Assembly: GCF_000402035.1 (NCBI RefSeq) | Contig: NC_021295.1 | Coordinates: forward strand, 186,001-250,000 | Direction: 5' to 3' | Origin: Caballeronia insecticola | GTDB lineage: Bacteria; Pseudomonadota; Gammaproteobacteria; Burkholderiales; Burkholderiaceae | Length of the DNA stretch: 64,000 bases | Shown: positions 814-24,151 of the stretch, piece after piece | How positions within the stretch are numbered: the first letter of the stretch is position 1 | Layout: each line of letters opens with the position of its first letter | Made by a program: the position numbers and the translations under genes | Notes under the pieces: generated by a model | What the model was told of the DNA's origin: nothing | Database searches by the model: none | The model's input: only the letters and a program-made list of their open reading frames with translations

Positions 814-2001
814 TTAGTCGAGCGCCTTGTTCAACGTTACGCTCGGTGCTGCAACCGAGATGACCAGTCTCAAGAACTTGTTGAACTCGGCCTCGGGCGA
901 ATTCGCGACGTAGATAACGTCGCGATCCTGAATCGCGAAATTTTGAGTAACGAAGAAAGAAGAAGGATCGCGCAGATCGACTTGATAGACGACCGGGACC
1001 GTGCCTTTCGCTACCTGGCCGTCAACCAGTCCGGCTTTCTCAAAGCGGAAGATGAACACGCCTCGCGCGTCGGCGCGATTGTCGATCAACCCTCCGGCGC
1101 GTGCTAATGCCTGCGCCAGCGAAATTCCCTGTGCTTCGAGCGGCATTTCGTCGTTCTTGCCCGTTGCCCCGAGCACGGAGAAACTCTCGGGCTGGAACAA
1201 GGCTGTCACAACATCGCCCGGTTCGAGTCGAACGTTCTGCCGCGGATCGCGAATGACCGAACCAAGCGCCATGGTCGACGTGACCTTTCCGCGCGTCAGT
1301 TGAACAGCAACGCGGCTGACCGCTTCTTTCACACCGCCTCCGGCCGCGATTGCATCGAGAAGGCGTTCGCCCTTCGGCGTCAACGGCAGTTGCAGACTAT
1401 TGGTCACTTCTCCAACCACGGTCACGCTGGCGCTGTTGTTCTTGACAACCTGGACCATAACCTGGGGATTATTGGCCTTGCCTTTCAGGCGCTGCGTGAT
1501 ATCCGCCTCGATCTCCTGAGTGTCGCGCCCTTCCACGGTTATGCGCCCCGCAAAAGGCATCGTGATCGTTCCGGCGGCGGAAACCATTTGCTGAGGAAAC
1601 GTGACAGCCGTGGAGACACCCGCCGTGGCAGGCTTGGTCGGGTCCAGCATGCCCGAGCCGAACAGCATGGCCGGCGGCGACTCCCAAACCGAAACATCGA
1701 GCACGTCGCCCGGACCGATTACATAGTGATTCGCCGCGTTGCCGGCAAATACATCCGAGAACCGGCCCAAGGTTTTTCCAGCGGCCAGTTTCCTGGTCAG
1801 CGTGTCATTGACGTCGATTAGCTGGATGCCCTGGATTCGGCTTTCCTTCGGCAATTCCATGACTTGCTCGCGGCTGGCGCCACTGGAAGAAATCCAGCCC
1901 GGCATGGTTCCGCAGCCAGTCAAAGCCAGGCACAACGCGGCAATCCTCGAATAGCCGCCCAGCTTCGACACATGCTTTTCCACTTTCATTTGAACTTGCA
2001 T
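814..2001 (-). CDS. Polysaccharide export outer-membrane lipoprotein (Wza/KpsD/CtrA family)
   Basis: This 395-residue protein would form or gate the outer-membrane and periplasmic channel for capsule export. A short N-terminus and hydrophobic stretch end in a lipobox (LALTGC, Cys30), so it is a predicted lipoprotein. A Poly_export domain starts near residue 85 (YVIGPGDVLDVSVWE). Two SLBB-type repeats follow, near residues 190-225 (VVGEVTNSLQLPL) and 275-305 (FSVLGATGKNDEMPLE). The C-terminal segment VISVAAPSVTL may be the outer-membrane anchor. A second in-frame ATG at 1989 (MKVEKH) would also leave a complete signal peptide, and neither start has a strong Shine-Dalgarno sequence. The gene is transcribed toward the ABC permease, 155 bases away. 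Confidence 0.9.
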   Translation of the reverse strand: MQVQMKVEKHVSKLGGYSRIAALCLALTGCGTMPGWISSSGASREQVMELPKESRIQGIQLIDVNDTLTRKLAAGKTLGRFSDVFAGNAANHYVIGPGDVLDVSVWESPPAMLFGSGMLDPTKPATAGVSTAVTFPQQMVSAAGTITMPFAGRITVEGRDTQEIEADITQRLKGKANNPQVMVQVVKNNSASVTVVGEVTNSLQLPLTPKGERLLDAIAAGGGVKEAVSRVAVQLTRGKVTSTMALGSVIRDPRQNVRLEPGDVVTALFQPESFSVLGATGKNDEMPLEAQGISLAQALARAGGLIDNRADARGVFIFRFEKAGLVDGQVAKGTVPVVYQVDLRDPSSFFVTQNFAIQDRDVIYVANSPEAEFNKFLRLVISVAAPSVTLNKALD

Positions 2002-2370: not shown

Positions 2371-3696
2371 TTACGGCAGCCCAGCCACTTTCTTCAGTAC
2401 GGCGATGCTGCGGCTAACCTGCTCCGCCTCATGCGTCGAGCAAATAAAAAACCGCAACCGTGCCGCCTTCTCCTCCACCGCCGGATAAAAAATCGGCTGC
2501 ACGTTGATCTCTTCTTCGAACAAAGCATTTGCCCACTGCGCGGCCTTGAGCGAACTTCCCGTAATCACCGGCACCACGGCATAACCCGCACTGGTTCCGG
2601 TATCGAGCCCGGCCGCCCGCGCCTCGCTCAGGAATTGCTTCCCGCGTGCCTGCAATCGCGCCACCCGCGCCGGTTGCGCGATCAGACATTCGAGCGCCGC
2701 GAGCGAAGCCTCGGCAAGCGCCGGCGCAAGCCCCACGCTATACAAGAACCCGGGCGCAAGGTTTCTCAACATATCGGCAAGCGGCTGGCACCCGGCGATG
2801 AATCCGCCGCACCCCGCGAGCGTCTTGCTCAGCGTGCCCATCCACAGATCGACTCGTTCCGAGGCCACGCCGCAATGCTCGCGAATGCCTCTGCCCGTCG
2901 CGCCCAGCACGCCGAGCGAATGCGCCTCGTCGACTAGCAGGAACGCCCCGTGCCGTTCCTTCACTTCGCAGAAGCGCTGCAGATCGGGAAGATCTCCGTC
3001 CATGCTGTAGAGACCTTCGATCGCTACCAGCACGTTGCGATACTCGCGGCGAACGCGCGCAAGAAGCTCGTCGAGCGCCTGCCAGTCGTTATGCGCAAAG
3101 CTCAGGCGCTTCGCGCCGCTGAGCTGCGCGCCCTGCACGATGCTGTTGTGCGCGAGCGCGTCGTGCACGATCAGATCGCCCGGTCCGAACAGCGAGCCGA
3201 TCACAGTCACATTCGTCGCATGCCCGCTCACGAACGCCACGCAGTCATCGGTTTCATAGAACGAGGCGAGCGCTCGTTCGAGTTCGCGATGCACCGGCCG
3301 TTCGCCCGCGACAATGCGGCTCGCCGAAGCCGACGTGCCATAACGGTCGATCGCCGCTTTTGCGCGCGCGGCGATCGTCGGATCGCCAGCCAGTCCCAGA
3401 TAACTGTAGTTGGCGAAGTTCACATACTCGCGACCGCCAATCCGCGTCGTCGCACCCGCGACACCGTCATGCACGCGAAAGAACGGCGACTCGACCCGCA
3501 AGGTCTCGCCCATCTCGCGCATCAGCTTGACCTGCTGGAATTGCGGCATCGCTTCGAAGCGGCTGCGCGCTGACAAGGCCTGCACAGCCTGACCGTCGGG
3601 CACGCCCGGCGCCGCGGCCGCATCGGTTGCGCGCTCCAGTTGCCGCTTCAGTGCCTTGGCTGCCAGCTGCTGGCGTAGTGTTTCTCCGAGTCCCAT
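2371..3696 (-). CDS. wcbT: PLP-dependent alpha-oxoamine synthase (AONS/serine palmitoyltransferase/KBL family), WcbT-like
   Basis: Enzymes of this family condense an amino acid with an acyl thioester, losing CO2, to give a 2-amino-ketone. The 441-residue protein has the fold-type I signature: a glycine-rich start (NFANYSYLGLAGDP), VDEAHSLGVLG containing the PLP-ring Asp and the following His, and the Schiff-base lysine in GTLSKTLAGCGG (Lys291). About 45 extra N-terminal residues distinguish it from biotin-pathway BioF (usually near 390). It is last in a minus-strand operon, 38 bases after the LpxC-like gene, so the acyl donor is plausibly the ACP-bound product of the PKS two genes upstream. 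No biotin genes lie nearby, which argues against BioF. The wcbT name rests on remembered gene order in B. pseudomallei. The amino-acid substrate cannot be read from sequence. Confidence 0.88.
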   Translation of the reverse strand: MGLGETLRQQLAAKALKRQLERATDAAAAPGVPDGQAVQALSARSRFEAMPQFQQVKLMREMGETLRVESPFFRVHDGVAGATTRIGGREYVNFANYSYLGLAGDPTIAARAKAAIDRYGTSASASRIVAGERPVHRELERALASFYETDDCVAFVSGHATNVTVIGSLFGPGDLIVHDALAHNSIVQGAQLSGAKRLSFAHNDWQALDELLARVRREYRNVLVAIEGLYSMDGDLPDLQRFCEVKERHGAFLLVDEAHSLGVLGATGRGIREHCGVASERVDLWMGTLSKTLAGCGGFIAGCQPLADMLRNLAPGFLYSVGLAPALAEASLAALECLIAQPARVARLQARGKQFLSEARAAGLDTGTSAGYAVVPVITGSSLKAAQWANALFEEEINVQPIFYPAVEEKAARLRFFICSTHEAEQVSRSIAVLKKVAGLP

Positions 3697-3734
3697 GTAA
3701 TCCGATCTGACCTGTTAATTCGGCTCGTCGCGCG

Positions 3735-4688
3735 TCACGCGTCCGCTTCGACCCATTCGTATGCGCCTTGCGTGCCGAGCAGCGCCGCGAGCAGCCGGTA
3801 ATTCATTTCATGCGTCGGTCGCCGCGCCGTCACATGCGCGAGCAGCGGCGCGCCGGCGAGCGCGAGATCGCCGACCAGGTCGAGCACGCGATGACGCACG
3901 AACTCGTCCGGTTGACGCAAGCCACCAATGACCCGCTTGCCGACGATCGACGCGGTGCACGAGGTCCGTGCACCGCGCAGGATCGGCACGCCGCGCAGAT
4001 AACCCACGACGATCGCGGGCACGGCCCACTTGATCTGTCCATACGAGCGCGACGAGGCGATCTCTTCAGCGAAGCTGCGCGGCGTGAGCCGGCCATGCCA
4101 TTCCATGTCGCCGAAGCCCTTCAGATCGTTGTTATGTACGCTGAGTGCGTAGTCGTCCGCGGGTTCGACGCGCATTTCACGGCGCGCGGCACCCTCGCTG
4201 TCCGCGACGCTCACTGCCTGAAGCACGCGCAGGAAACGCTTTTTCTGCGGCAGTGCGGTACGTCCGCACGGCAGAATCGCATCGATCCAGGGTTGCGCAC
4301 TGCCATCGAGAATCGGCACTTCTTCGGCATCCAGTTCGACGACCGCATGATCGATTTCGCAAGCCAGCAGCGAGGCAAGCAGATGCTCGGTCGTGCGTAC
4401 GCCGACGCCCTCGTTCGCGTGCAGCATCGTGCACAGCGGCTGGCTCCGGCGCAGCGCCGGATCGGCCGGGACCGTACCGAGCACTTGTCCCTTGCGCGTG
4501 CGGCGAAACACGATGCCATGCCGTTCGCCCGAACTCGTCGTGGCGGCGGCCGGCAGAATACGCACGTTCACGTGCTGCCCCGTATGCAAGCCATGCCCCG
4601 ACAGTTCGAGCGGCCGCGCCAGCGTGCCTTCGCTCGCGTGCCACCCTGCCGGCAACTTCACTCCGCGAACGCCGGTGTCGACTGACAT
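3735..4688 (-). CDS. LpxC-like UDP-3-O-acyl-N-acetylglucosamine deacetylase paralogue in the capsule operon
   Basis: LpxC is a zinc deacetylase acting on acylated UDP-GlcNAc. This 317-residue protein (start ATG 4688, MSVDTGVRGV) keeps the family landmarks: SGHGLHTG, TTEHLLASL (Glu101, His102), HRVLDLVGD (His266, Asp270, zinc ligands) and a late His293 in THEMNYRLL, equivalent to the catalytic His265 of E. coli. The usual Lys of HKxxDxxGD is Arg here. The open frame extends much further upstream, but that part is antisense-frame noise inside the PKS gene. The chosen start overlaps the end of the PKS gene by 31 bases, implying translational coupling. A housekeeping lpxC would sit beside ftsZ, so this copy is probably specialised for a capsule or lipid intermediate. 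In B. pseudomallei the same slot is, from memory, wcbS. Confidence 0.85.
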   Translation of the reverse strand: MSVDTGVRGVKLPAGWHASEGTLARPLELSGHGLHTGQHVNVRILPAAATTSSGERHGIVFRRTRKGQVLGTVPADPALRRSQPLCTMLHANEGVGVRTTEHLLASLLACEIDHAVVELDAEEVPILDGSAQPWIDAILPCGRTALPQKKRFLRVLQAVSVADSEGAARREMRVEPADDYALSVHNNDLKGFGDMEWHGRLTPRSFAEEIASSRSYGQIKWAVPAIVVGYLRGVPILRGARTSCTASIVGKRVIGGLRQPDEFVRHRVLDLVGDLALAGAPLLAHVTARRPTHEMNYRLLAALLGTQGAYEWVEADA

Positions 4689-7600
4689 GGCTCGTCTCCC
4701 TGTTGATCCTGATCGTTGTTGCACGTGTTGCGATCTCGTTCGAGCAGCGCGCGCGCCTGGTTCTCGTCGAGCGCGTGCCGCGCGGCAAGCGCCGCCACTT
4801 CGTGGTTCGATTCCTGTAAGCCACCGCTGGTGTCGTCGCTCTCGCCATCGAGCATGTCGACGATACGGACAGCGAGCGTATGCACGGTGGCGCCTTCGGC
4901 AATCGCCATGATCGACAGCTTCACGCCGAACGATTCCTCGACCGCCATGCCGAGCTCCATGCCCATCAGCGAGTCCATGCCGAGCTCCAGCACCGAGCGG
5001 TCGAGCGCGACGCGCTCCGGCGACATGTGCAGGATGCGTGCGATGTGACCGCGCAGCGCGGTCTCGATCAGCGCAACCGCATCGTCCCGCGGTGCCGCGC
5101 GCAGTTGTTCGAGCAGCGCGCCATCCTCGCTGGTGGGCTCGGATGCGCCGCCGGCTTGCAGCGCCATATAGCGGCGCGCCTGCGCCGCGGGCATGCCGCG
5201 CGCGATTGCGCCCCAGTCCAGACGCACCACGGCCTCGCCGGCCGCCCCGTTGGCGAGCACGCGTTCGAGCGCGGTCATCGCTTCGTCGGAGGTGATCGAC
5301 GCGCCGCCGATGCGCGCTTGCAAGGCTTCGCGCGTCGCGCTGTTGCGCGCGAGGAAGCCGACATCCTCGATTGGCCCCCACGCCATGAAGGCAGCGGGCA
5401 GCCCGCTCGCGCGGCGATGTTCGACGAGCGCTTCGAGGAAGGTGTTGGCCGCCACGTACGCGCCCTGACCGGGATTGCCGAGAGAGGTCGTCGCCGACGA
5501 ATACAGCAGGAAGAAATCGAGCGCGCAGCGTTGCGTCGCGCGATGCAGATTCCACGCACCGGCCACTTTCGGTTCGAGCACGGCGAGCATGCGCGCGTCG
5601 TCGATATTGCGCAGCAGGCCATCGTCGATGTGCATCGCCGAGTGCAGCACGCCCTTGAGCGGCGTGCCGCGCGCCTCGATGGCGCGGATCAGGCGATCGA
5701 GCGCGACCGCATCGGTCACGTCGCACGACACCACCGTTACGGTGACGTCATGCTCGTCGCGCCAGCGTTCGAGCTCTTGTCGCCTGGCGGCGTCGAGCGC
5801 GCCGCCACGGCTCGCCAGCGTCAGATGCCGCGCACCGCGCGCGATCATCCAGCGCGCGCTCGCATAACCGAGGCCGCCGGTACCGCCGACGATCAGATAC
5901 GCTGCCTGCGGATCGAGACCGACGACCGGCTGAGCGACGCCGCGCGTCGGTGCGGGCGTACCCGATGCATAGGTGACGAGCACCTTGCCGATCTGGCGCG
6001 CCTGCTGCATGTAACGGAACGCCTCTTCCGCGCGCGCGGCGGGGAACGCGCGATACGGCAGCGGATGCAGCACGCCGTTCACGAAAAGCGTCATCACCTC
6101 TTCGAAGAGGCGCGTGGTGAGTTCCGGCAGCACGCCCATCAACTGGTCGGCGTCGATGCCGAAATAACTGATGTTGTTGCGGAACGGTCGCAGGCCGATA
6201 TGGCTGTTCTCGTAGAAGTCGCGCTTGCCGAGTTCGAGGAAACGGCCGAACGGACGCAGCGTGTCGATGCCGCGCACCATCGCTTCCCCCGCGAGCGAGT
6301 TGAGTACGATGTCGACGCCCGCGCCGTTCGTACAGGCACGCACATCGTCGGCGAAGGCCAGACTGCGCGAGTCGAACACGCGATCGGCGCCGAGCAGACG
6401 CACGAACTCGCGCTTCTCGTCCGCGCCCGCGGTAGCGAACACTTCCGCGCCGAGATGACGGGCGATCTGGATCGCCGCAATGCCAACGCCACCCGCGCCG
6501 CCGTGCACGAGCACACGCTCGCCGCGCCGCAGCCGGGCTAGTTCGCACAACGCGTAATACGCGGTGAAGAACGTAGTGGGGATCGTGGCGGCCGCCTCGA
6601 AGGACATGGCCTCGGGTTTGCGCGCGATCGCACCCGTACGGGTGACGACGCGCGTCGCGAAGGAAGCCGGCGCGAATCCGAGCACCGCATCGCCGGGTGC
6701 CCAGCCCTTGACGCCCGCGCCGACGCGCACGATACGCCCCGAGAGTTCCATGCCGATGGTCGCGCCGGCGAAGCCGGTCTCGACCGCTTCGTCGGAAAGC
6801 AGGCCCATCGCATACATGACGTCGCGGAAGTTCAGACCGGTCGCCATCGGCGCGATCTCGACTTCGTCGGCGTTCAGTTCGAGCGCGGGCAAGGCGAACC
6901 ATTCGAGGTTGCGCAATGAGCCGGGCATATCGAATGCCAGCACGGCAGGTACGCGATCCGCCGTCGATGCGTCGCGCGCCTGCCGCTCGGCGCTCTGCGC
7001 CGGCAACATGCGCGGCACATGGCGGCCTTGCGTGGTGAGCAGCACTTCTTCCTCGACGTCGGCCGACAAGAGCTCGCGCGCCAGTTGCACGATGGCTTCG
7101 TCTTCCGCGCATGCGACGTCGACGAGTTGCAGCGCAAGCGTGGGATATTCATTCGCCATGACGCGGCCGAGTCCCCACAGGCTCGCCTGATCGGGTTGCG
7201 TCACAGCGCCTGCGCCTCGACCGAACGGCGCTCCGCCGCGCGTCACCACACGCAGACGGGTCCGGGCCGATATACCGGCTGCATCGAGTGCCCGTACGAG
7301 TGCGGCGAGTGCTAGCGCGCCATCCTGTTGCGCACACATGACGTCGGCGCCGCTGGCGTCGTCGAGCGATACGCGCGGTGCGATGAACACGATCTGCGCT
7401 TCCGGCCTCGTTGCTTCGAGCCGTGCAGCCGCTTCGTTCATGCGCGTCTGTTCTACATTGCGGCCACGATGCGCGAGTTCCCCGGCGAGCGCGGAGCCGA
7501 ATGCATCATCGTCGGCCTGCACGATCAGCCAGGGCCGGGCATCGACCGAAGCGGATTGCGCTTGCTGTGTAGACATGGGCTTGCGTGCGACCAAGAAGGT

Positions 7601-10600
7601 CGGCGCGCCTTCGAGATCGAGGCCCTGCTCCGTATGACGCGTAATGTCCCGCAGGCCCGCGCGCTCGCAGAGCGAATGCAGCGCGGCCGGCGCGAGCGCA
7701 CCATAGGCTTGCGTGCCGAGTTCCTGCCCCGCCGCGCCGAATACAATGTCGGTGAAACGGCTGCGGCGCGCATCGGCGAGCACGAGCATGCCGCCCGGCG
7801 CGAGGTGCTCGACGATCGCGTGCAAGACTGTCAGCGGATCGGCCTGTTCGCCGATCATGCGGTTGACGACGATCACGTCGAACGGCACGGTGTCGCGGCA
7901 ATGGCCGAACAAGGCTTCGTTTTCGCCGAGCTGGAGCGTTTGCACGTGGTCGCGCGCTTCCGCATCGAGTGCGGCGAGTTGCTGATGCGTGCCCGCGAGC
8001 ACGTGCTCGCACTGCGGCTGCGGCACGCCGATATCGAGCGGCTGCAGCACTTCCCCAAGCGTCGCGCCGATTTCCAGCACACGCAGGCGGCGAGACTTCG
8101 GCCATGCCGCAAGCGCTTCTTTGGCACAGGCCGCGAGCATGGCGCGGGCATGCGACCACGTCGGCGAGGCATCGAAGAACTGCTCGGCCAGGCTGCGCCC
8201 CGTCGGAGAAAGCAAGGCGGGAGCCGCGCTGCCGGACGCTTCGCCGCGCAGCACGCGCGGCAACGCTGCACCGACGTGCGCCAGCAGCGTCAGCTCGGCC
8301 ACATGCGCCGGCGAATCCGCCAGCACATCGCGCCACAGCGCATCGAGTGCGGGCATCGCGGCACACGCCGCATCGTCGCGCACCAGACGCTTGCCCTCGA
8401 AACGGGCGAAGCCGTCTTCCACGACGATCTGCGCAAGACGGGCGAGCAAGCTCGCATTGGCCGATGCCGGCAGCGCGGGCTGCGCGAATACGCCGATCGC
8501 ATCCAGCGCGTTCAGCGCATACAGGCCCGCGAGTACATCGAGCAGCGGCAAGGTTTCGGTCAGATGCCGCGTGCGCTGGCCGTTGTCCCCCAACGAGGCG
8601 AGACGTCCGCTCGCGCGTTCCACGAGTGCAGGCGGCGCGGGCAATGCGGCAGCCGTGAAGTGATCGGGCAAGGGACGCGCTTCGAGCGCGTAGGCAAAGC
8701 GCGCGGGTGCGGCATGGCGTCGGCCCGTCAGGTCGACGCGGCGGAAACGGCACGCCGACAGACGCGCGACGATGGCGTTATCGGCGTCGAGGAAGTCGAA
8801 TGAAGCGACGATCGAATGCGGACTGCGGCGCTGCACGCGCACCAGCACGCGGCGCACCGAGTCGCCGCGCAGAAAATCGACACGGCCGATCTGCACCGGC
8901 ACGAATGCGGCGCGCGCGTCGCTCGCCTCGGCGCCGGCCTGGCCGAGTACGGCAAAGAGCGGATGAAAACCGCTGTCAATCAGCGCGGGATGCAGCAGCC
9001 AGCCGTTTAGCGCCTGCGATCCACCGAGCGCCTGCGGTGCTTCGAAGTCGCCGAGGGCATCGTCGCCTTGCACCCGAACCTGACGCACCCAGCGGAAGCT
9101 CGGGCCATAGTTCAAGCCGATGGCAGACGCGCTTGCGTAAAGCGCCTCGCCGCGCATCGCGGGACTCGCTTCGAGACGTGCAAGCACGGCCGGGTCGGCC
9201 ATGCCCTGCGCGCCGAGCGTGCTGCCGCTTTCGAGCAGGCGGCCTGTCACGTTCAGATTCCACGGCCCGTCGCTCATGCGCTCGCGGGTCTCGATCGTAA
9301 ACGATGCCGTGCGCGCATCGATCACGAAGCGGAACAACTTCGCGTGCTGCGGCTGGAACACGACCGGCAGGCGAATCTCGAGGTTTTCGAGCGAGACAGC
9401 CGAGGTGCCGAAAAACACCCGCGCCGCAGCCTGCGCCATTTCCACATAACCCGCGCCCGGGAATGCCACGCCGCCATCGACGACGTGATCGGCGAGCATC
9501 GGCACGCCTTGCGGATCGAGCTGGTTTTCCCACGCGAACGCGTGCTCGTGCAAACGATAGCCGAGCAACGGATGATCGATGCGGCGATTCACGAGGTCGT
9601 AGCCCTCGATGGTCGCCTTCTGCCAATGGCGCTCACGCTGCCACGGATAGGTCGGAAGCATCGTGCCGCAGCCCTTCTGCGGCACCGGCACAAATCGGTC
9701 GAGATCGACGCGCGCACCGTGCGCGACCGCCAGCAGCGTCGAATGCGCGAGCATCTGCGCGCTGTCGTGATGGCGCTTGAGCGTCGGCACGACTGCGCCG
9801 GCGATCTTCAGAGCGGCCAGCGTCTGCTTGACGTAGTGACGCAGGATCGAATGCGGCGCGATTTCGATGAAGGTCCGCACGCCCGCATCGGCGAGACTCT
9901 GGATCGCGGCGCCGAAACGCACCGGCTCGCGGATGTTGCGCCACCAGTAGTTCGCATCGAGCGCAACGCCGGCAAGCGTGTCGCCCGTGACCGTCGACAC
10001 GAAGGGCTTCGTGCCTTCGCGCGGCGTCAGGTCGGCGAGACCTTCTTGCACGACCGGTTCGATCGCGTCCATGTGTCCGCTATGGAACGCGTAGTCGAGG
10101 TCGAGCAGCTGGAAGAAGCTGCCGTTCGCATCGAGCGATGCACCGATCGCGACGAGCGCCTCGGGCGAGCCGGCGAGCGTGACGGCTTCGGGGCTGTTGA
10201 CGCCGGCCAGTTCGACGGACTCCGCCAGACCGAGGCGCTCGATCAACGCCCGCGCCTCGGGTTCGCCGATACCGGCCGCCGCCATCATGCCGGTGCCGCG
10301 CGTCAGACCCTGCGCGCTGCTGCGAATGCGGATCACGCGCACGGCTTCAGCCAGCGTCAGCGCGCCCGATGCCCATGCCGCCGCGATCTCGCCGACACTA
10401 TGACCGACGGTTGCATCGCAATCGATGCCGCGTGCTTCGAGCGCGCGCGTGATGCCAACCTGGATCGCGAAGAGCAGCGGTTGCGCGTTCTCCGTCGCCG
10501 CGAGCCAATCGGCGCTTGCACCGGCGCGCAGCAGGTCGACGAGCGAGTCGCTGCCGTCGGCACGCCACAGCGCATCGACTTCGTCAAGCGCCGCACGGAA

Positions 10601-12289
10601 CACCGGGTCTTCCTGATAGAGCTGCCGGCCCATGCCGGCCCACTGACAGCCGTTGCCCGAGTAGACGAACGCCACCTTCGCGCCCGACGCCACGGCTTCG
10701 CCTTGCGCGACGTAAGCCGGCAGCGCCTCGTCCGACGGGTTCGCGAGCATCAGCAATGCGGCGCGACCGGCTTCCAGATCCGGCGGTGCAATGATCACGC
10801 GCTGTTCGAGCCATTCGCGACGGCGTGCCGCACCGGCCGCGCATGTGTCCCAGTCGGTCTTCGAGTGCAGGCGCGCGTGATAGCGCGCCGCGAGCGCGGC
10901 CAGCGCGGCAGGCGAGCGCGCGGAGAGCACTAGCGGCGGCAACGCTGCATCCGCGCTTGCCGTGCCGGGTGCGACAGGCTTGGCCGTGCTCACCGCCTCG
11001 GCGAGCACGACGTGCGCATTGGTGCCGCCGAAGCCGAACGAATTCACGCCGATGGTCAGCGGCGAACCTTCGCGACGCGAGAGCGGCGTGAAGCGATCGA
11101 CGACGCGCAGCCGCCCGCCTTCGAAATCGATCGCGGGATTCGGCGTTTCGAAATGCAGCGAGCGCGGCACCGCGCCGTGCTTCAGGCAAAGGATCGCCTT
11201 GAACAGACCGGCCATGCCCGAGGCGGTTTCGAGGTGACCGACATTGGTCTTGACCGAGCCGATCAGCAACGGATCGTCGATCGGGCGGCCTTCCGCGACC
11301 GCCTCCATCAACGCGCGCGCCTCGATCGGATCGCCGACTGCGGTACCCGTGCCGTGCGCTTCCAGATAGGCGAGCGAACGCGGATCGACGCCTGCCCGGC
11401 GATAGACCGTACGCAGCAGTTCGGCCTGCATGGCCGTGGTCGGCACGCTGATACCGCCGTGCGAGTGGCCGTTGGAGTTGACACCCGAACCGGCAATGAC
11501 GGCGTGGATGGTATCGCCGTCCGCGAGCGCGCGTTCGAGCGGCTTGAGCAGCACAAACGCGCCGCCCTCGGAGCGCACATAGCCGTCGCCGCTTGCATCG
11601 AAGGCACGGCAGCGTCCGCGCGGCGACAACATCGAGGCCTTCGAGAAGCTTACGAAACCAAACGGATGGAGCAGCAGATTCACGCCGCCCGCGAGCGCCA
11701 TGTCGGTTTCGCCCGACTGCAAGGCCTGCACGGCCTGATGCAACGCGACGATCGACGACGAACAGGCCGTGTCCACCGACATGCTCGGGCCGCGCAGATC
11801 GAACAGATAGGAAACGCGATTGGACGCGATGCTGAGCGTATTGCCCGTGGCCGAGTACGGATCGATCCAGTTCAGATCGTCCATGCTGCGGTTGCCGTAG
11901 TCCATGCTCGCGGCGCCCACGTACACGCCGCAATCGCGGCCGCGCATCTCGCCCGGACGCACGCCGGCATCCTCGAACGCTTCCCACGCGAGTTCGAGCA
12001 GAAGGCGTTGCTGCGGATCCATCTGCGTCGCCTCGCGCGGCGAAACGCCGAAGAACGCGGCATCGAAGCCGGCGACGTCATCCAGCACGCCCGCGGAAAA
12101 GGTATAGCTCTTCCCCGCTTCCTTCTTCGACGGATGCTGGTAGAACGCCGTGCCGAATCGATCGGACGGCACGACCGTCACTGCGTCGCGCTCGTCGCAC
12201 AGCAGTTGCCAGAAGCCTTCGGGGCTTGTCACTCCGCCGGGAAAGCGACATGCCATCCCGATAATCGCGATTTTCCTTTCCATCATCAT
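4658..12289 (-). CDS. wcbR: Type I highly reducing polyketide/fatty-acid synthase, KS-AT-DH-(cMT)-ER-KR-ACP, WcbR-like
   Basis: This 2543-residue megasynthase contains one full reducing module. KS is at about 5-430 (DTACSSS with Cys176, EAHGTGT, KTNVGHLE). AT is at about 540-840 (GHSVGE, Ser631). DH is at about 905-1180 (His935 in HVVDGGVAFP). A methyltransferase-like segment at about 1350-1560 has a degenerate SAM motif, LEIGATLGE. ER is at about 1790-2090 (HGGAGGVGIAA near 1930). KR is at about 2115-2300 (VGGTGGLG near 2133, then YSSATTSLGNPGQGAYVAAN). ACP is at about 2400-2480 (LGMDSLM, Ser2440). There is no thioesterase, so the chain needs an external release step. ATG at 12289 overlaps the stop of the upstream gene as ATGA. 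Two more ATGs follow immediately, and the open frame to 12643 is read-through. The likely product is a saturated, possibly methyl-branched acyl-ACP made iteratively. Confidence 0.93.
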   Translation of the reverse strand: MMMERKIAIIGMACRFPGGVTSPEGFWQLLCDERDAVTVVPSDRFGTAFYQHPSKKEAGKSYTFSAGVLDDVAGFDAAFFGVSPREATQMDPQQRLLLELAWEAFEDAGVRPGEMRGRDCGVYVGAASMDYGNRSMDDLNWIDPYSATGNTLSIASNRVSYLFDLRGPSMSVDTACSSSIVALHQAVQALQSGETDMALAGGVNLLLHPFGFVSFSKASMLSPRGRCRAFDASGDGYVRSEGGAFVLLKPLERALADGDTIHAVIAGSGVNSNGHSHGGISVPTTAMQAELLRTVYRRAGVDPRSLAYLEAHGTGTAVGDPIEARALMEAVAEGRPIDDPLLIGSVKTNVGHLETASGMAGLFKAILCLKHGAVPRSLHFETPNPAIDFEGGRLRVVDRFTPLSRREGSPLTIGVNSFGFGGTNAHVVLAEAVSTAKPVAPGTASADAALPPLVLSARSPAALAALAARYHARLHSKTDWDTCAAGAARRREWLEQRVIIAPPDLEAGRAALLMLANPSDEALPAYVAQGEAVASGAKVAFVYSGNGCQWAGMGRQLYQEDPVFRAALDEVDALWRADGSDSLVDLLRAGASADWLAATENAQPLLFAIQVGITRALEARGIDCDATVGHSVGEIAAAWASGALTLAEAVRVIRIRSSAQGLTRGTGMMAAAGIGEPEARALIERLGLAESVELAGVNSPEAVTLAGSPEALVAIGASLDANGSFFQLLDLDYAFHSGHMDAIEPVVQEGLADLTPREGTKPFVSTVTGDTLAGVALDANYWWRNIREPVRFGAAIQSLADAGVRTFIEIAPHSILRHYVKQTLAALKIAGAVVPTLKRHHDSAQMLAHSTLLAVAHGARVDLDRFVPVPQKGCGTMLPTYPWQRERHWQKATIEGYDLVNRRIDHPLLGYRLHEHAFAWENQLDPQGVPMLADHVVDGGVAFPGAGYVEMAQAAARVFFGTSAVSLENLEIRLPVVFQPQHAKLFRFVIDARTASFTIETRERMSDGPWNLNVTGRLLESGSTLGAQGMADPAVLARLEASPAMRGEALYASASAIGLNYGPSFRWVRQVRVQGDDALGDFEAPQALGGSQALNGWLLHPALIDSGFHPLFAVLGQAGAEASDARAAFVPVQIGRVDFLRGDSVRRVLVRVQRRSPHSIVASFDFLDADNAIVARLSACRFRRVDLTGRRHAAPARFAYALEARPLPDHFTAAALPAPPALVERASGRLASLGDNGQRTRHLTETLPLLDVLAGLYALNALDAIGVFAQPALPASANASLLARLAQIVVEDGFARFEGKRLVRDDAACAAMPALDALWRDVLADSPAHVAELTLLAHVGAALPRVLRGEASGSAAPALLSPTGRSLAEQFFDASPTWSHARAMLAACAKEALAAWPKSRRLRVLEIGATLGEVLQPLDIGVPQPQCEHVLAGTHQQLAALDAEARDHVQTLQLGENEALFGHCRDTVPFDVIVVNRMIGEQADPLTVLHAIVEHLAPGGMLVLADARRSRFTDIVFGAAGQELGTQAYGALAPAALHSLCERAGLRDITRHTEQGLDLEGAPTFLVARKPMSTQQAQSASVDARPWLIVQADDDAFGSALAGELAHRGRNVEQTRMNEAAARLEATRPEAQIVFIAPRVSLDDASGADVMCAQQDGALALAALVRALDAAGISARTRLRVVTRGGAPFGRGAGAVTQPDQASLWGLGRVMANEYPTLALQLVDVACAEDEAIVQLARELLSADVEEEVLLTTQGRHVPRMLPAQSAERQARDASTADRVPAVLAFDMPGSLRNLEWFALPALELNADEVEIAPMATGLNFRDVMYAMGLLSDEAVETGFAGATIGMELSGRIVRVGAGVKGWAPGDAVLGFAPASFATRVVTRTGAIARKPEAMSFEAAATIPTTFFTAYYALCELARLRRGERVLVHGGAGGVGIAAIQIARHLGAEVFATAGADEKREFVRLLGADRVFDSRSLAFADDVRACTNGAGVDIVLNSLAGEAMVRGIDTLRPFGRFLELGKRDFYENSHIGLRPFRNNISYFGIDADQLMGVLPELTTRLFEEVMTLFVNGVLHPLPYRAFPAARAEEAFRYMQQARQIGKVLVTYASGTPAPTRGVAQPVVGLDPQAAYLIVGGTGGLGYASARWMIARGARHLTLASRGGALDAARRQELERWRDEHDVTVTVVSCDVTDAVALDRLIRAIEARGTPLKGVLHSAMHIDDGLLRNIDDARMLAVLEPKVAGAWNLHRATQRCALDFFLLYSSATTSLGNPGQGAYVAANTFLEALVEHRRASGLPAAFMAWGPIEDVGFLARNSATREALQARIGGASITSDEAMTALERVLANGAAGEAVVRLDWGAIARGMPAAQARRYMALQAGGASEPTSEDGALLEQLRAAPRDDAVALIETALRGHIARILHMSPERVALDRSVLELGMDSLMGMELGMAVEESFGVKLSIMAIAEGATVHTLAVRIVDMLDGESDDTSGGLQESNHEVAALAARHALDENQARALLERDRNTCNNDQDQQGDEPCQSTPAFAE

Positions 12290-13815
12290 GCCGGCATCTG
12301 CTGCAACTCGTTGCGCGAATCGGTGTCGACACAGTCCGCGTGCATCGCGCGCTGTACCGTGATACCAAGGGTTTCGACGCTCACATTCCGGCGCGTACCC
12401 AGGTCGCTGCCGAAATTGCGCCAGATAAAGTAGTCGCTGTGGGTCGGTTCCGTTTCGAGCGCATCGAACACGGATGACATCGCGGGAACGTGATCGCCGT
12501 AGAAGCACAGCACGGTCGGTCGGGTGCGCTTGCGCAGATAGCCGGTCAGTTTGCCGATCATCGCGTCTGCGTTCTCGACGTGCCGCAGATAGGCCGTCAA
12601 ATCGCGCCAGCGCGCGTCCTCTCCGAGCGTGTGCCGCGAACACGATTCACCGCGCGACACCGTCTCCAGATGCAAGGGACCGTGATTTTCCATCGTGATG
12701 GCGAACGCGAACAAAGGTTTGTCGTCGCTCGCTTCCAACAGGCCGATGAGCTTGTCCGCCACCGCAAGATCGCCGACATAGGGGCCGACGCGAGCCTCGC
12801 TGTCAAACGCTTCGATGTCGATAAAGCGCTCGAAGTGCATATGCCCGAATGCCCGCCGACGACCGAAGAAGCTCGTGTGGTAAGGGTGAACGGCGCACGT
12901 GCGATATCCGCCGCGGCTGAAATAGCCCGCCAGCGACGCGCACGCGCGGCGCACGAACATATACGGATAAAAGCGCGCGTAGCCGAGTTGCGCCGGATTC
13001 AGGCCCGTGAGCATCGCAAACTCACTGCGCATCGTATTGGCGCCCCAGGCGGGCACCGCCAGTTCGCCCTGCTCGAAGGACTCGCGCGTGGCCCGATCGA
13101 AATGCGCATAGGGCGCGCCGGACACGCATTGGCCGAGCCGGCGGGCGTCGAAGAACGACTCGCTCTGAATGACGATGACGTCCGGATGGACGTCCGGGCC
13201 ATCGGCCGCGAACGGGCTGTTATCGGTGGCGCGCGCGAATGCGTGCCGTTGCGCGCGGCTCAAGCCGTTGATCGCGTAGGCGACGAACGCGGCAAAGAAC
13301 CCGAAGCGACGCTGATCGGAAAACGGCTCCAGCGTAAGGGGCAGGCGGCGCGCGAGCGCGATGCAGGCCGGCAAAGCCAGCCATGCAACGACGGCGGCGA
13401 CGTAGCGCGACGCCTGTGTCACAGGACTTTCGGCGAAGAACGCTCCCGCCACGCCCGCGATCGACACCAGCACCACGGTGAGCTTGCCGATGCCGAGAAA
13501 CGGCAGATACAGGCGCGGATGCGAGAAGACCTGGCTGAAGAGACTCAGGTCGCTGAAGACCAGCGGTTCGCGCAGCGAGGCATGTTTGGCGTTGCCCACT
13601 ACCGCGAGCAGGCCGATCGCCCCAAGCGTGACGCCTGTCGAGAACAACGGCCGTCCTGTCAGCGCGAGGCAAGCAGCACTCACGACAACCAGCGCCGCCA
13701 CGTGCAGCATAAGCGCACGCGGCGGTCGACGGAGCGAGGATCGGGTGACGGCGATCGCCTCGACGGCGAACGAGCAGGCGGCGAGGACGGCCGCGAGTGT
13801 TGAGCCGAGGACCAC
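12286..13815 (-). CDS. LtaS/MdoB-like membrane sulfatase-superfamily phosphotransferase, WcbQ-like
   Basis: The protein has 509 residues. About five N-terminal membrane segments (roughly 1-25, 35-55, 57-75, 105-128 and 138-160) are followed by a large extracytoplasmic alkaline-phosphatase-fold domain. That domain keeps the metal and nucleophile signatures of lipoteichoic-acid synthase-like enzymes: VIVIQSESFFDAR, GANTMRSEFAMLTG with the nucleophilic Thr, ITMENHGPLH and FYGDHVP. Such enzymes transfer phosphoglycerol or phosphoethanolamine from phospholipids, or act as sulfatases. In a capsule operon a modification or anchor-transfer role is plausible. The gene starts with GTG one base after the SDR stop and overlaps the PKS start by four bases, so it is firmly inside the operon. 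The wcbQ slot is from remembered gene order. The substrate is unknown. Confidence 0.82.
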   Translation of the reverse strand: MVLGSTLAAVLAACSFAVEAIAVTRSSLRRPPRALMLHVAALVVVSAACLALTGRPLFSTGVTLGAIGLLAVVGNAKHASLREPLVFSDLSLFSQVFSHPRLYLPFLGIGKLTVVLVSIAGVAGAFFAESPVTQASRYVAAVVAWLALPACIALARRLPLTLEPFSDQRRFGFFAAFVAYAINGLSRAQRHAFARATDNSPFAADGPDVHPDVIVIQSESFFDARRLGQCVSGAPYAHFDRATRESFEQGELAVPAWGANTMRSEFAMLTGLNPAQLGYARFYPYMFVRRACASLAGYFSRGGYRTCAVHPYHTSFFGRRRAFGHMHFERFIDIEAFDSEARVGPYVGDLAVADKLIGLLEASDDKPLFAFAITMENHGPLHLETVSRGESCSRHTLGEDARWRDLTAYLRHVENADAMIGKLTGYLRKRTRPTVLCFYGDHVPAMSSVFDALETEPTHSDYFIWRNFGSDLGTRRNVSVETLGITVQRAMHADCVDTDSRNELQQMPA

Positions 13816-13816
13816 G

Positions 13817-14602
13817 TCACATATTCCGGCGAGGGATCTGAAACAGGCGCCCGAGGATCGCGTCGGCGAGCGTTGCTGGCAACAGGCGCAGCAACTTGAG
13901 GCCTAGCGTCAGGCTGAAGGGAAAAGCGATTTCCACGTGGCGGCGCGTCAGGCGCTTCTTGATGAACGAGGCGGCTTTTTCAGCGCTCCACATGAACGGC
14001 TTGTTACCGGGAAACACGTCGCTCATCGAGGTTCGCACGAATCCGGGCATCACGACTGAAATGCCGATACGGTCGCGCGCGAGAACTGGCCGAACGGAAT
14101 CGCAATACGCCACGAGCGCGGCCTTGCTTACGCAATACGCCGGCGAAATGGCCATTCCCCGCAATCCGGCAAGCGAACTGACGATCGCGATCTGGCCGCG
14201 CCGGCGATCGCGCATGCGTTCGATGGCGGGCAGCACGGCATGCAAGGCGCCGTAAAGATTGATATCGACTACTTCCGCAGTACGGCCGATGCCTTCCCAG
14301 TCGTCCGATGAGCGGAGCGTGCTGGCCACGCCGGCATTGGCGATCAGCAAGTCGATCGGGTGTTGCGCGTCGAAGTCGAAGATCCACGCCTGAAGTGCTG
14401 CTGCGTCACGAACGTCCAGACAGCCCGAGACGACCTCGGCGCCGCGCGCGCGACACTCCGCTGCAACGGTCTGCAGACGTTCGGCGTTTCTGCCAATCAA
14501 TCCCAGCGTGATACCGGGGGCGCTATAGCTCAAGGCCAGCGCGCGCCCGAGTCCGGCGCTCCCGCCAGTGATTACCACCGCGCGGGATTCATCGGCGCTC
14601 AC
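13817..14602 (-). CDS. Short-chain dehydrogenase/reductase, 3-ketosphinganine-reductase-like (WcbP-like)
   Basis: This is a classical SDR of 261 residues. It has the NADP-binding TGGSAGLGRALA at the start, NAGVAS near residue 90, a catalytic Ser in SSLAG and the YCVSKAAL catalytic Tyr-Lys pair. A basic and hydrophobic C-terminal tail (FSLTLGLKLLRLLPATLADAI) suggests membrane association. The GGSAGLG form and hydrophobic tail resemble 3-ketodihydrosphingosine reductases, which reduce the direct product of an alpha-oxoamine synthase. Such a synthase is encoded at the other end of this operon. The start is GTG at 14602, behind GAGGGG. The gene is first in the operon and the next start follows one base after its stop. 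The substrate assignment is an inference from context. Confidence 0.82.
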   Translation of the reverse strand: MSADESRAVVITGGSAGLGRALALSYSAPGITLGLIGRNAERLQTVAAECRARGAEVVSGCLDVRDAAALQAWIFDFDAQHPIDLLIANAGVASTLRSSDDWEGIGRTAEVVDINLYGALHAVLPAIERMRDRRRGQIAIVSSLAGLRGMAISPAYCVSKAALVAYCDSVRPVLARDRIGISVVMPGFVRTSMSDVFPGNKPFMWSAEKAASFIKKRLTRRHVEIAFPFSLTLGLKLLRLLPATLADAILGRLFQIPRRNM

Positions 14603-15402
14603 TCGCCCCTCGGTTTCAAGGAGTATTGCTTTTTTGACATGGCTCTAATTCTGAGTTATCACTTCTTTTTTTTGCGGAGGCTAGTCGCGTAATCACACAC
14701 GGACCGCTAGCGAAAAAATGCGCGGCCAAAGCATTCGCTGCTACATGGATTTGCGTAAGCAAAGCTACTGAATCGCAAAGTCCGCGCTTGCGGCGGAGAC
14801 CTTTTCGCGCTTTCCCATCGGCTAGGGAGACACTCGATGCCGCAAAGCGGCGAATGCCTGAAAGCGGAGGAAGTGAAAAATTTGCAAGCTTTTATCAATT
14901 CGAGAAATAATAACGCAGACAAAAGGCGTGCGCTATTACAATTTGCAATCTTTACTTAAAAGTTGTTCCTCCACCACAAGTCTGAGTCCTTAAATGGGTA
15001 GAAATTACCGATTCAAAAGTTTTTGTTCATATGAATAGATAAAATGATTAGACTTCGGAATGCCGACTGACAGGGTTTGTCGACGGTGTGGCTCGTAAGC
15101 GCCGCCCATCTCTCGGAACTCCGCTTGCTAAGCGTTTGGCATCGCCGCTGGCGTGCAATCAAAAAGACTCGAGCGCGGAACTTGACAAGCGGATGCAAGC
15201 GCCTTGGCGTGAGTGCCCGACTTCCCGCCTCAAATTGTCTCGAGCCCGCCCCTCTTGATTCAGCCAGCGAATGGACTTGCCCAGGATATGCGCAAACGTT
15301 TGCATAATTTCCCCGGTCCAGAACTTTTTTCTCCCGTTACAATCTCCGCCGCCCTCTTACATCCGCTCGACGTTACGTAAACGGTCCGCAAGGCTTCTCT
15401 GC
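14603..15402. promoter_or_regulatory. 800-base divergent intergenic region of the capsule operon, low GC in its middle
   Basis: I see no convincing gene here. The part from about 14640 to 15060 is much richer in A+T than the surroundings and should contain the promoters for the capsule operon (minus) and the asparagine-synthase-like gene (plus). A possible 13-codon leader frame (MSKKQYSLKPRGE) starts at 14640 on the minus strand, and its stop overlaps the GTG start of the SDR gene as GTGA. Confidence 0.4.
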
Positions 15403-16482
15403 ATGAAATACCTTTATCGCTCCCGCTTAGACACGAACCGTTTCTTTAATCGATGTGTTTTCCGGGATAGAAACGATCTCTTCTCTGATAGCTTTCATTC
15501 GCTAGCGACGGCACAGGAGACTTTGACGTTCGATGAGTCGTTCCTTGACAAGAGCTTCAAGAGTACGATCGAAACGCCGTTTAAGGAAATCTGGAGAGCG
15601 GCACCGGAAGAATATTGCGCCGACGTCCTGCCGACTCGGATTCCCACCTACTTCGGTTCATATGAGAGTTATCTGGATGAACTGGAAAGGACGCTCGAAC
15701 GAGTGCTCCTGCGAATGGACCCTGCAAAGAAGTATCTGATGGCGCATTCATCGGGATCGGATAGCCGCATCATTTCCGGGACCATGGCGCGCCTGAAGCG
15801 CCAGGGGAAAATGTCGTTTGATAACGTGCTGTTCCATTGCTGGTGTACTTTCGAGGCAGACTCCTTCCGCCAGATCATGGCCACGAATGGCTGGACGAAT
15901 TTATCGTTCGTGGACGACAGCCAGCCGGACGTCTACAACATCGGCCGACTTGATATCCCATGCGAAGGGTGGAACCCCTACACCTATCAGATGGATTTTT
16001 GGGGTGATCTCGATCCCCGCGAGTATGTGCTCGTGTCGGGTGCTCAGGAAACTTACTCCGTCCCATACGAAAGATGGGTTTACGCCAGCAGCTTTTTCAA
16101 TACCAGAGGGGAAAGCATTCACAGGATGGCGAATGTTTTCCAGGATGTGTTCTTCCCTTTTCTGACGCACGACATGCTGAACATCACAATGTCCATGCCG
16201 AGGGAGTGGAAGAACATCAAGGATTCGAGGATAGGTCGAGACAAGGTCCGAACCGATCTCGTAGAACGGTTGGGCTTAATTCACATTCCCGTGCAAGCAG
16301 CCTCGTGCCGATTCAATGTGTCGCCGGAACGGCGGCAGACGATGCTCGACGCGTACGAGCGAGGCAAGTTTAAGAAGAACTATGGAATTCAACTCGACGA
16401 GGATGACCTGTTCAAGGTGTGGGGCGGTTGGAACTCATGCCTCTGGAGCTTCGCGGTCACAGTCTACGAACCGCTGATGTAA
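15403..16482 (+). CDS. Asparagine-synthase-like (PP-loop) protein without glutaminase domain
   Basis: The protein has 359 residues from ATG 15403 (MKYLYRSRLD). It carries a PP-loop-like motif, AHSSGSDSRIISG, near residue 115, of the kind used by asparagine-synthase ATP-pyrophosphatase domains to adenylate a carboxylate. The remainder (EADSFRQIMATNGW and later aromatic-rich segments) fits a stand-alone synthetase-like domain. There is no N-terminal class II glutaminase Cys, so ammonia or another amine would be the nucleophile, or the protein has a different role. Such proteins are often found in polysaccharide loci, where amide decoration of sugar acids has been proposed. It is divergent from the capsule operon across an 800-base gap. 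The lower-GC codon choice at its start suggests transfer with the locus. Confidence 0.6.
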   Translation: MKYLYRSRLDTNRFFNRCVFRDRNDLFSDSFHSLATAQETLTFDESFLDKSFKSTIETPFKEIWRAAPEEYCADVLPTRIPTYFGSYESYLDELERTLERVLLRMDPAKKYLMAHSSGSDSRIISGTMARLKRQGKMSFDNVLFHCWCTFEADSFRQIMATNGWTNLSFVDDSQPDVYNIGRLDIPCEGWNPYTYQMDFWGDLDPREYVLVSGAQETYSVPYERWVYASSFFNTRGESIHRMANVFQDVFFPFLTHDMLNITMSMPREWKNIKDSRIGRDKVRTDLVERLGLIHIPVQAASCRFNVSPERRQTMLDAYERGKFKKNYGIQLDEDDLFKVWGGWNSCLWSFAVTVYEPLM

Positions 16483-19234: not shown

Positions 19235-19333
19235 GCACTTCACGATAGCGAAGCGCAACACCGCGCAGGTTTACGGAGATTTGTAACAGCCGGCCCAGCC
19301 GTTGTTTACCGGCAACGGCGGCGACACCGGAAT

Positions 19334-19687
19334 TTAGCCCGTGTGGGTGTACTGCCGCGTGGGATGACGGCGCACCGCGTCGACATCGACGCCATCTAGC
19401 AGCAGGTGAAGCTGTTCGGTGGTGAACTCGATCACTGCCTGCTGACGGCGGGGCCATATCAAATGGTCCGCCTCGAGTCGCTTCATCAGGAGCCAGAAGC
19501 CAGCCCGGTCATAGAGCACAAGCTTCACGCGATCACGCTTACGATTGTGGAATGCAAAGACGGCTCGCGCGAACGGATCAAGTTGCATCGATTGCTCGAC
19601 CACTGTCACCAGTGTATTCAGTCCGCAGCGGAAGTCGATTGGTTCGCGATGCAGGTAGATCCGCAGATCATCGTCAAAGCGGAACAT
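19334..19687 (-). CDS. tnpB: IS66 family accessory protein TnpB
   Basis: The 117-residue protein carries the IS66 Orf2 pattern: YLHREPIDFRCGLNTL, then DPFARAVFAFHNRKRDRVK, LVLYDRAGFWLLMKRLE and a C-terminal DGVDV. TnpB is required for IS66 transposition but its biochemical role is unclear. Its ATG at 19687 shares one base with the TGA stop of tnpA (TGATG), the usual translational coupling in this family. A gap of about 100 bases separates it from tnpC. Confidence 0.92.
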   Translation of the reverse strand: MFRFDDDLRIYLHREPIDFRCGLNTLVTVVEQSMQLDPFARAVFAFHNRKRDRVKLVLYDRAGFWLLMKRLEADHLIWPRRQQAVIEFTTEQLHLLLDGVDVDAVRRHPTRQYTHTG

Positions 19688-20160: not shown

Positions 20161-20174
20161 CGTCGTTGCGTCCG

Positions 20175-21045: not shown

Positions 21046-21082
21046 CGGAATTAGCGTACCTATTAGCAAAATTAACGTACCT
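21041..21082 (+). repeat. Two 21-base tandem direct repeats after the tniQ fragment
   Basis: Unit one, 21041-21061, begins ATTAGCGGAATTAGCG and ends TACCT. Unit two, 21062-21082, begins ATTAGCAAAATTAACG and ends TACCT. They match at 18 of 21 positions. Short tandem sites of this size are what transposases of the TnsB/TniA type bind near element ends. The rest of 21083-21350 holds no gene that I can see apart from the second repeat pair. Confidence 0.6.
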
Positions 21083-21210
21083 CAACAATTACTGAACAGC
21101 GCGGGCGTAGGTGCGCATATGAGATTGTGCAAGGGGCGTAGGACGAAGCACTTACATTCTTGCCACAACGCCCAGGAGCAAGCAAACCATCGACGATACG
21201 GCGACGGCTA

Positions 21211-21249: not shown

Positions 21250-21350
21250 TGTGAGCGGCAACGTGCGACCATCAGTTTGGCTCGAATAGACGTCTGTTTA
21301 GATAACTCTTATTATCTTAATAGCCTAATTTTGAGGTTAAACTGGCGTGC

Positions 21351-24118: not shown

Positions 24119-24151
24119 GAGGCCGCTGCAATCAGCGTAATCACAACAAGC

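What the first reader, a model, noticed from the sequence alone, without database searches (positions are those of the whole stretch)
2371..14602. A five-gene operon that could make a sphingoid-like lipid inside a capsule locus
SDR, LtaS-like enzyme, full reducing PKS without thioesterase, LpxC-like deacetylase and alpha-oxoamine synthase are tightly coupled (overlaps of 4 and 31 bases, gaps of 1 and 38 bases). An alpha-oxoamine synthase next to an ACP-ending synthase is a known way to offload an acyl chain as a 2-amino-ketone, and a ketosphinganine-reductase-like SDR is the next logical step. This suggests a dedicated amino-alcohol lipid, perhaps a capsule anchor distinct from the lyso-phosphatidylglycerol/Kdo anchor of E. 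coli. The gene order matches remembered wcbP-T of B. pseudomallei, where the chemistry of these genes is, to my knowledge, not resolved.
Basis: partly seen in the sequence, partly recalled or inferred. Interest (0 to 1): 0.8.

Follow-up and report, generated by a model that had tools for sequence, protein, structure and literature searches.

The report
Capsule lipid operon with PKS–oxoamine pair
A soil-type bacterium carries, beside its capsule export genes, a conserved five-gene set that probably builds a sphingosine-like lipid to hold the capsule; such gene sets are known, but their lipid chemistry seems unsolved, and this copy sits in a capsule locus without the usual sugar-linker genes.

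Summary
Five minus-strand genes (SDR, GacH/LtaS-like transferase, KS-AT-DH-(decayed MT)-ER-KR-ACP synthase, LpxC-like deacetylase, alpha-oxoamine synthase) meet at junctions of +1, -4, -31 and +38 bases and run into Wza, KpsM, KpsT, KpsE. They are the known wcb/rkp-1 kind of capsule lipid genes; all five, in this order, occur in 59 of 80 named relatives.

The hand-off from PKS to oxoamine synthase is well supported: the PKS lies directly upstream in 92 of 93 informative loci, and one genome fuses both into one protein. The synthase fails the NCBIfam cut-offs for BioF, KBL and SPT, and the genome has separate BioF and KBL. A 2-amino-ketone is likely; serine, hence a true sphingoid, is not shown.

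KpsS, which starts the Kdo linker, is encoded directly before the SDR in 64 of 85 loci. Yet the window's subgroup (13 genomes searched) shows no full-length KpsC/KpsS match, so one lipid operon seems to serve capsules with and without that linker. None of ten paper searches turned up the lipid's structure. New variant of a known kind; it makes an old question testable.

The parts
13817..14602 (-). SDR reductase (261 aa), WcbP/RkpH-like (names recalled); proposed to reduce the 3-ketone of the amino-ketone lipid
12286..13815 (-). LtaS/GacH-like phosphoglycerol transferase (509 aa, 5 hydrophobic segments)
   Evidence: Pfam Sulfatase 138 bits; best solved relative GacH, E 1.8e-15; E219, T261, D441, H442 invariant in 29 sequences; segments
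4658..12289 (-). Iterative type I PKS, KS-AT-DH-(decayed MT)-ER-KR-ACP, no thioesterase found (WcbR/RkpA-like)
   Evidence: Pfam domains, sequence read, motifs in 87 sequences
3735..4688 (-). LpxC-like deacetylase, second LpxC-family gene of the genome
   Evidence: NCBIfam PRK13187 497 bits, cut-off 423; zinc and catalytic positions line up with E. coli LpxC (their roles recalled); housekeeping copy elsewhere
2371..3696 (-). Alpha-oxoamine synthase (441 aa, WcbT/RkpG-like), proposed off-loader of the PKS chain
   Evidence: Pfam Aminotran_1_2; below the BioF, KBL and SPT cut-offs; H183, D256, H259, K291, R415 invariant in 99 sequences; model pLDDT 90.9, SPT and KBL nearly level in fold
814..2001 (-). 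Wza-type outer-membrane export protein; first gene of the export module that continues beyond the window (KpsM, KpsT, KpsE)
   Evidence: Pfam Poly_export and SLBB; following genes in L005

Best explanation
The operon makes a dedicated amino-alcohol lipid for an ABC-transporter capsule. Step 1 (inferred from domains and motifs): the PKS works like a fatty-acid synthase and builds a saturated, unmethylated chain from malonyl units on its own ACP. Step 2 (strongly supported): with no thioesterase, the chain is taken off the ACP by the alpha-oxoamine synthase, which condenses it with an amino acid, with loss of CO2, to a 2-amino-3-ketone; serine is my first guess (about 50%), glycine or alanine next. 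Step 3 (inferred): the SDR reduces the ketone to a sphinganine-like amino alcohol. Step 4 (inferred): this lipid is the acceptor on which the capsule is started. In wcb-type relatives KpsS, encoded directly before the SDR, would add the first Kdo; in the window's subgroup another, unidentified glycosyltransferase must do so. The GacH-like enzyme probably adds a phosphoglycerol head group, and the LpxC-like enzyme, present only in some lineages, removes an acetyl group from an aminosugar or amide near the lipid. KpsMTE-Wza exports the product.
For: PKS ER-KR directly upstream of the synthase on the same strand in 92 of 103 loci; 10 of the other 11 are stretches cut at the synthase. Natural fusion KS-AT-DH-ER-KR-ACP-oxoamine synthase of 2611 aa. 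PKS motifs kept: AT GHSVGE and KS HGTGT in 87 of 87, KS DTACSSS in 84 of 87; MT motif I canonical in 1 of 86. BioF and KBL lie elsewhere in the genome; S122, E132 and C296 in 99 of 99 family members, unlike both paralogues. Co-occurrence: 12 of 12 genomes with a full-length GacH-like hit have the synthase, 5 of the other 386 do; 16 of 17 synthase genomes have full-length KpsE against 59 of 381. KpsS directly upstream of the SDR-transferase pair in 64 of 85 loci. Two papers describe the rhizobial homologues as a lipid carrier or anchor pathway (PMC3557214, PMC4881576; passages).
Against: No product or mutant was examined. The synthase is as close to KBL as to SPT: KBL ranks first by sequence profile, and by fold SPT leads by only 1.0 in Z (52.0 against 51.0), so serine is not established. 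LtaS-type enzymes act outside the membrane and KpsS inside (recalled), so a phosphoglycerol head on the KpsS acceptor needs the opposite topology; charges favour that, homology does not. 5 of 17 synthase genomes of the phylum draw show no full-length GacH-like hit. One synthase locus (L118, 49% identity) has no PKS beside it. No ketosphinganine reductase is named among the best fold matches shown for the SDR. The genomes are related, so the counts are not independent.
Confidence: 0.6

Rival explanations
1. The operon makes an amino-alcohol or amino-ketone lipid, but as a free membrane lipid or export helper, not as the covalent anchor of the capsule.
For: In some genomes SDR-transferase and PKS-synthase lie far apart (for example 84 kb in G107, over 600 kb in G207), so the lipid need not be made at one locus. 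One review words the rkp-1 lipid as involved in secretion (PMC4881576, passage).
Against: KpsS adjacency in 64 of 85 loci and the tie to KpsE point to capsule initiation.
Confidence: 0.2
2. The synthase uses glycine or alanine, so the product is a 1-amino-2-alkanol or 1-deoxysphinganine type lipid, without the C1 hydroxyl of a sphingoid.
For: By phmmer and by profile the closest solved enzymes are 2-amino-3-ketobutyrate CoA ligases.
Confidence: 0.3
3. Ordinary lipid supply: the PKS makes an acyl chain for an acylated sugar anchor (as in Vi antigen) and the LpxC-like enzyme prepares the aminosugar; the synthase has another role.
For: LpxC-family deacetylase in the operon; Vi capsule also lacks KpsC/KpsS and uses a diacyl-HexNAc anchor (PMC12220298, passages).
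Against: The LpxC-like gene is missing from many cassettes with an intact PKS-synthase pair, and the pair is fused in one genome.
Confidence: 0.12
4. The oxoamine synthase is a biotin (BioF) or threonine-catabolism (KBL) enzyme that merely sits there.
For: BioF is the best NCBIfam model by score (335 bits).
Against: Below both cut-offs; bona fide BioF and KBL elsewhere in the genome; family-specific residues; PKS fusion.
Confidence: 0.02

Closest known systems
Burkholderia wcb (CPS I) lipid genes, wcbP-wcbT
   Same: Same kinds of genes and, as far as I recall, the same order; a synthase labelled B. pseudomallei is 83% identical. [quoted passage not shown]
   Different: wcb-type relatives carry KpsS directly before the SDR and KpsC nearby; the window's genome has no full-length match to either. 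The B. pseudomallei locus itself was not fetched.
Rhizobial rkp-1 region (rkpA, rkpGHIJ)
   Same: PKS plus modification genes with a capsule role; described as a lipid carrier or anchor pathway (PMC3557214, PMC4881576, passages). WcbR and RkpA are treated as one PKS group (PMC3908369, passages).
   Different: The kinds of rkpG-J enzymes are recalled. Loci here from other classes of the phylum (for example L129-L133) show no LpxC-like hit in the stretch; which of them are rhizobial is not known.
Serine palmitoyltransferase with a dedicated ACP (Caulobacter type)
   Same: Oxoamine synthase that takes its chain from an ACP (PMC9386255, start of abstract and passages); same fold.
   Different: There the ACP is a separate small protein loaded by a synthetase; here it is the last domain of a PKS. 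SPT cut-offs are not met.
Fungal sphinganine-analogue pathways (highly reducing PKS + oxoamine synthase + ketoreductase)
   Same: Same three-step logic with a PKS lacking a thioesterase (recalled, not tested here).
   Different: Bacterial, MT decayed, tied to capsule export.
Vi-antigen type anchor (VexE, diacyl-HexNAc)
   Same: ABC-transporter capsule without KpsC/KpsS (PMC12220298, passages).
   Different: No PKS or oxoamine synthase is mentioned for it in the passages read; VexE was not searched for here.

Membership tests
wcb/rkp-1 type capsule lipid cassette | WcbR/RkpA-like PKS next to a WcbT/RkpG-like oxoamine synthase | tested here: met
   (the LpxC-like gene lies between the two in the window)
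wcb/rkp-1 type capsule lipid cassette | SDR and LtaS/GacH-like transferase pair | tested here: met
wcb/rkp-1 type capsule lipid cassette | located with ABC-transporter capsule export genes | tested here: met
   Wza in the window, KpsM/KpsT/KpsE next to it
Group 2 (beta-Kdo linker) capsule system | KpsC and KpsS (PF05159) present | tested here: not met
   Own genome: only a 44-position, 30-bit PF05159 match on another contig
Serine palmitoyltransferase | NCBIfam SPT models above cut-off | tested here: not met
   279 of 500, 278 of 640 and 224 of 670 bits
Serine palmitoyltransferase | uses L-serine and a long acyl thioester | not testable with these tools
   Needs an assay
BioF (8-amino-7-oxononanoate synthase) | TIGR00858 above cut-off | tested here: not met
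   335 of 426 bits; a true BioF, 461 bits, is elsewhere
KBL (glycine C-acetyltransferase) | NCBIfam KBL models above cut-off | tested here: not met
   310 of 460 and 262 of 493 bits; a true KBL is elsewhere
LTA synthase / phosphoglycerol transferase | Glu, Thr, Asp-His active-site residues | tested here: met
   E219, T261, D441, H442 invariant in 29 sequences; their role is recalled from LtaS
LTA synthase / phosphoglycerol transferase | NCBIfam LtaS equivalog cut-off | tested here: not met
   21 of 970 bits
LpxC-family deacetylase | PRK13187 cut-off and zinc/catalytic residues | tested here: met
Ketosphinganine reductase | sequence or fold match to a known KDSR | tested here: inconclusive
   Sequence profile: 60 best of 613 hits shown; fold: 50 rows each; none is named KDSR, the best are 17-beta-HSD13 and 11-beta-HSD1
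Vi-type (VexE) anchor | VexE homologue in the locus | not tested
   Not searched for

The most novel reading that the evidence does not exclude
A KpsC/KpsS-free capsule built directly on a polyketide-synthase-made sphingoid base that carries a phosphoglycerol head, that is, on a sphingoid mimic of lyso-phosphatidylglycerol; in the wcb-type relatives the same mimic would be the KpsS acceptor. This would be a further kind of Gram-negative capsule anchor besides Kdo-linked lyso-phosphatidylglycerol and the diacyl-HexNAc of Vi, and I know of no other bacterial sphingoid made by a PKS for a surface polymer (recalled).
Probability: 0.2. Interest if true: 0.82.

Novelty: new variant of a known kind. 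Interest (0 to 1): 0.58.

Why it matters
[quoted passage not shown] A defined chemical class (2-amino-ketone, then amino alcohol), a natural PKS-synthase fusion, and two capsule types that share the lipid operon but differ in the Kdo-linker genes turn this into a question that lipid mass spectrometry in a harmless strain can settle. If right, it adds a capsule anchor and a bacterial parallel to fungal sphinganine-analogue chemistry.

Tried and rejected
KpsS replacement: among 13 class A loci no gene family upstream of the SDR is shared by more than 6. In those 6 the genes are homologues of L027's cytochrome-oxidase genes; in 4 others, of L008's glycosyltransferases; 3 loci (L030, L032, L037) fall in neither (only L027 and L008 proteins were run through Pfam). 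So the starter glycosyltransferase of class A is not identified. KDSR: the profile search gave general SDRs and 17-beta-HSD11/13, the fold searches 17-beta-HSD13, 11-beta-HSD1 and ketoacyl reductases. Active PKS methyltransferase: rejected, motif not canonical in 85 of 86. Cytoplasmic phosphoglycerol transfer: left open, since charges (basic loops 1-2 and 3-4 and after segment 5) and homology to LtaS disagree. Thresholds: of 33 GacH-like genomes I kept the 12 with full-length hits of 235 bits or more; of 167 KpsE genomes the 75 with E below 1e-48, only 1 of 398 passing the model's own cut-off; of 24 synthase genomes the 17 with 413 bits or more; the 7 weaker synthase rows (272-338 bits) were dropped. 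G209, a weak GacH-like hit (33% identity) without a WcbT-type synthase, is counted as the one miss. The pair rule missed L094 (KpsS-SDR-transferase, match split) and L104 (KpsS-transferase-SDR), seen; the count of 64 of 85 was left as computed. Papers: searches were made; PMC4264864 and PMC13171606 were searched for terms and gave nothing useful; the primary rkp papers PMC178947 and PMC2772494 are not held, and the primary wcb papers were not seen.
Full report
WHAT IS THERE. The window is G000:C5:186001-250000 of a 6.96-Mb genome in 5 contigs. The best named homologues of the transferase and the synthase are mostly from Paraburkholderia, Burkholderia and Caballeronia. Five minus-strand genes follow each other without room: SDR 14602-13817, LtaS/GacH-like 13815-12286, PKS 12289-4658, LpxC-like 4688-3735, oxoamine synthase 3696-2371. 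Wza follows at 2001-814; beyond the window edge come KpsM, KpsT, KpsE (276 bits to TIGR01010, below that model's cut-off of 437.5), an 827-aa coiled-coil protein, WecB, WecC and glycosyltransferases. So this is an ABC-transporter capsule locus, probably with an N-acetyl-hexosaminuronic acid in the polymer (inference from WecB/WecC).

THE PKS. Pfam finds KS, AT, DH, a methyltransferase-like region, ER, KR and ACP, and nothing after it. Among 87 sequences aligned, AT GHSVGE and KS HGTGT occur in 87 and KS DTACSSS in 84. The variants shown of the second AT motif carry xAFH or xPFH, which by general knowledge means malonyl-CoA. Methyltransferase motif I is canonical in 1 of 86, L102, so this domain is most likely dead, as in animal FAS (recalled). 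Expected product: a saturated straight chain left on the ACP.

THE HAND-OFF. Of 103 loci with a strong synthase hit, 92 have the PKS ER-KR within 2 kb upstream on the same strand; 10 of the 11 others are stretches that end at the synthase, and one (L118, 49% identity) lacks the PKS. In G511 (L140) PKS and synthase are one 2611-aa protein, KS-AT-DH-ER-KR-ACP-Aminotran_1_2; it keeps the SASASR and GTLSK motifs. A second, more distant fusion joins AMP ligase, ACP, KS, DH, ACP and synthase (L145). This is direct evidence that the ACP-bound chain meets the synthase.

DISTRIBUTION. A named-genome scan found 410 relatives of the transferase and kept the best 80; all five genes in order are present in 59 of the 80, and 4 others are cut by contig ends. 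In other families and in Gammaproteobacteria such as Thiotrichaceae the SDR-transferase pair and the PKS-synthase pair are often convergent or further apart. Yet the synthase was found, at 52% identity or more, in 26 of 27 genomes chosen for a transferase hit, the own genome included; the miss is G209, whose transferase hit was weak. In a draw of 300 genomes of the order, 10 of 11 transferase genomes have the synthase against 9 of 289. In a draw of 398 genomes of the phylum, 12 of 12 against 5 of 386, and 16 of 17 synthase genomes have full-length KpsE against 59 of 381 (thresholds under Tried and rejected). The genomes are related, so the p-values (7e-13, 2e-19, 9e-12) overstate the case.

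TWO CAPSULE TYPES, ONE LIPID OPERON. KpsS lies directly upstream of the SDR in 64 of the 85 loci that passed my rule for an SDR-transferase pair; 2 have it near; 4 of the other 19 end at the SDR; the remaining 15 are 14 window-like loci plus L011 (G061). Of 57 genomes searched for PF05159, 42 have a match. Of the 13 window-like (class A) genomes among them, 11 have none, G000 a 30-bit fragment and G285 a 66-bit partial match, both on other contigs; L027's and L034's genomes were not in that search. Outside class A, G061, G107, G209 and G339 also have none, so the lack is not confined to it. Class A loci carry Wza, KpsM, KpsT, KpsE, WecC and the coiled-coil protein beside the synthase in the window's genome and in 8 of 9 further genomes whose downstream side I fetched (L106-L113; not in 18 kb of G310, L114), and in G285 at the far end of the locus. 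For G306 only WecB, WecC and the coiled-coil protein were reached; G307 was not fetched. Completeness is known only for G000 (99.99%) and G285 (100%).

MECHANISM. KpsS starts the Kdo linker on the lipid in E. coli (recalled). Its place beside the SDR suggests that the SDR product is the lipid acceptor of the capsule. In class A the linker genes are missing but the lipid operon stays, so the lipid is the constant part and the linker the variable one. If the GacH-like enzyme adds phosphoglycerol to the lipid, the result mimics lyso-phosphatidylglycerol, the E. coli anchor. That last step depends on membrane topology, which I could not settle.

LITERATURE. [quoted passage not shown] diacyl-HexNAc anchor), PMC9386255 (SPT fed by a dedicated ACP; RkpF among ACPs). 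None of the listings of the ten searches pointed to a structure of this lipid or to the sphingoid route; most subscription papers are not held, so this is not proof of absence.

VERDICT. A real, conserved and known kind of operon. What I add is the natural fusion, the KpsS-SDR link, and the capsule type without full-length KpsC/KpsS to which this copy belongs.

Noticed in passing
L005 13546-16029 (-), just beyond the window's left edge; homologues in L106-L113, L125, L146: Coiled-coil protein with a conserved N-terminal part, a coil of variable length (frames printed: 612-1051 aa) and, in several, C-terminal methyltransferase-like parts that differ between loci (by eye); recalls WbdD-type chain-length rulers..
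   Followed up: partly
Genomes G107 and G015 (one genus, order of the window): G107 has no LpxC match and neither genome has an LpxB match over the cut-off (LpxC was not searched in G015), so this may be a lipid A-less lineage; G107 still has the oxoamine synthase and the GacH-like gene..
   Followed up: partly
window 37687-45675: MFS, LysR, C26 peptidase, ferredoxin-reductase-like, glutamine-synthetase-like and Rieske oxygenase genes: looks like a gamma-glutamylation plus oxygenase route for an amine (aniline-type, recalled)..
   Followed up: no
window 17627-31814: IS66 transposase, two integrases and an H-NS-like gene between the capsule operon and the catabolic genes: a mobile region..
   Followed up: no
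L145 2198-8014 (+): One 1937-aa protein with AMP-binding, ACP, KS, DH, ACP and an oxoamine synthase, another PKS-synthase fusion, distant from the operon's family..
   Followed up: partly
window 15271-16482 (+): 403-aa frame without any Pfam match, divergent from the operon across a 668-base gap..
   Followed up: no
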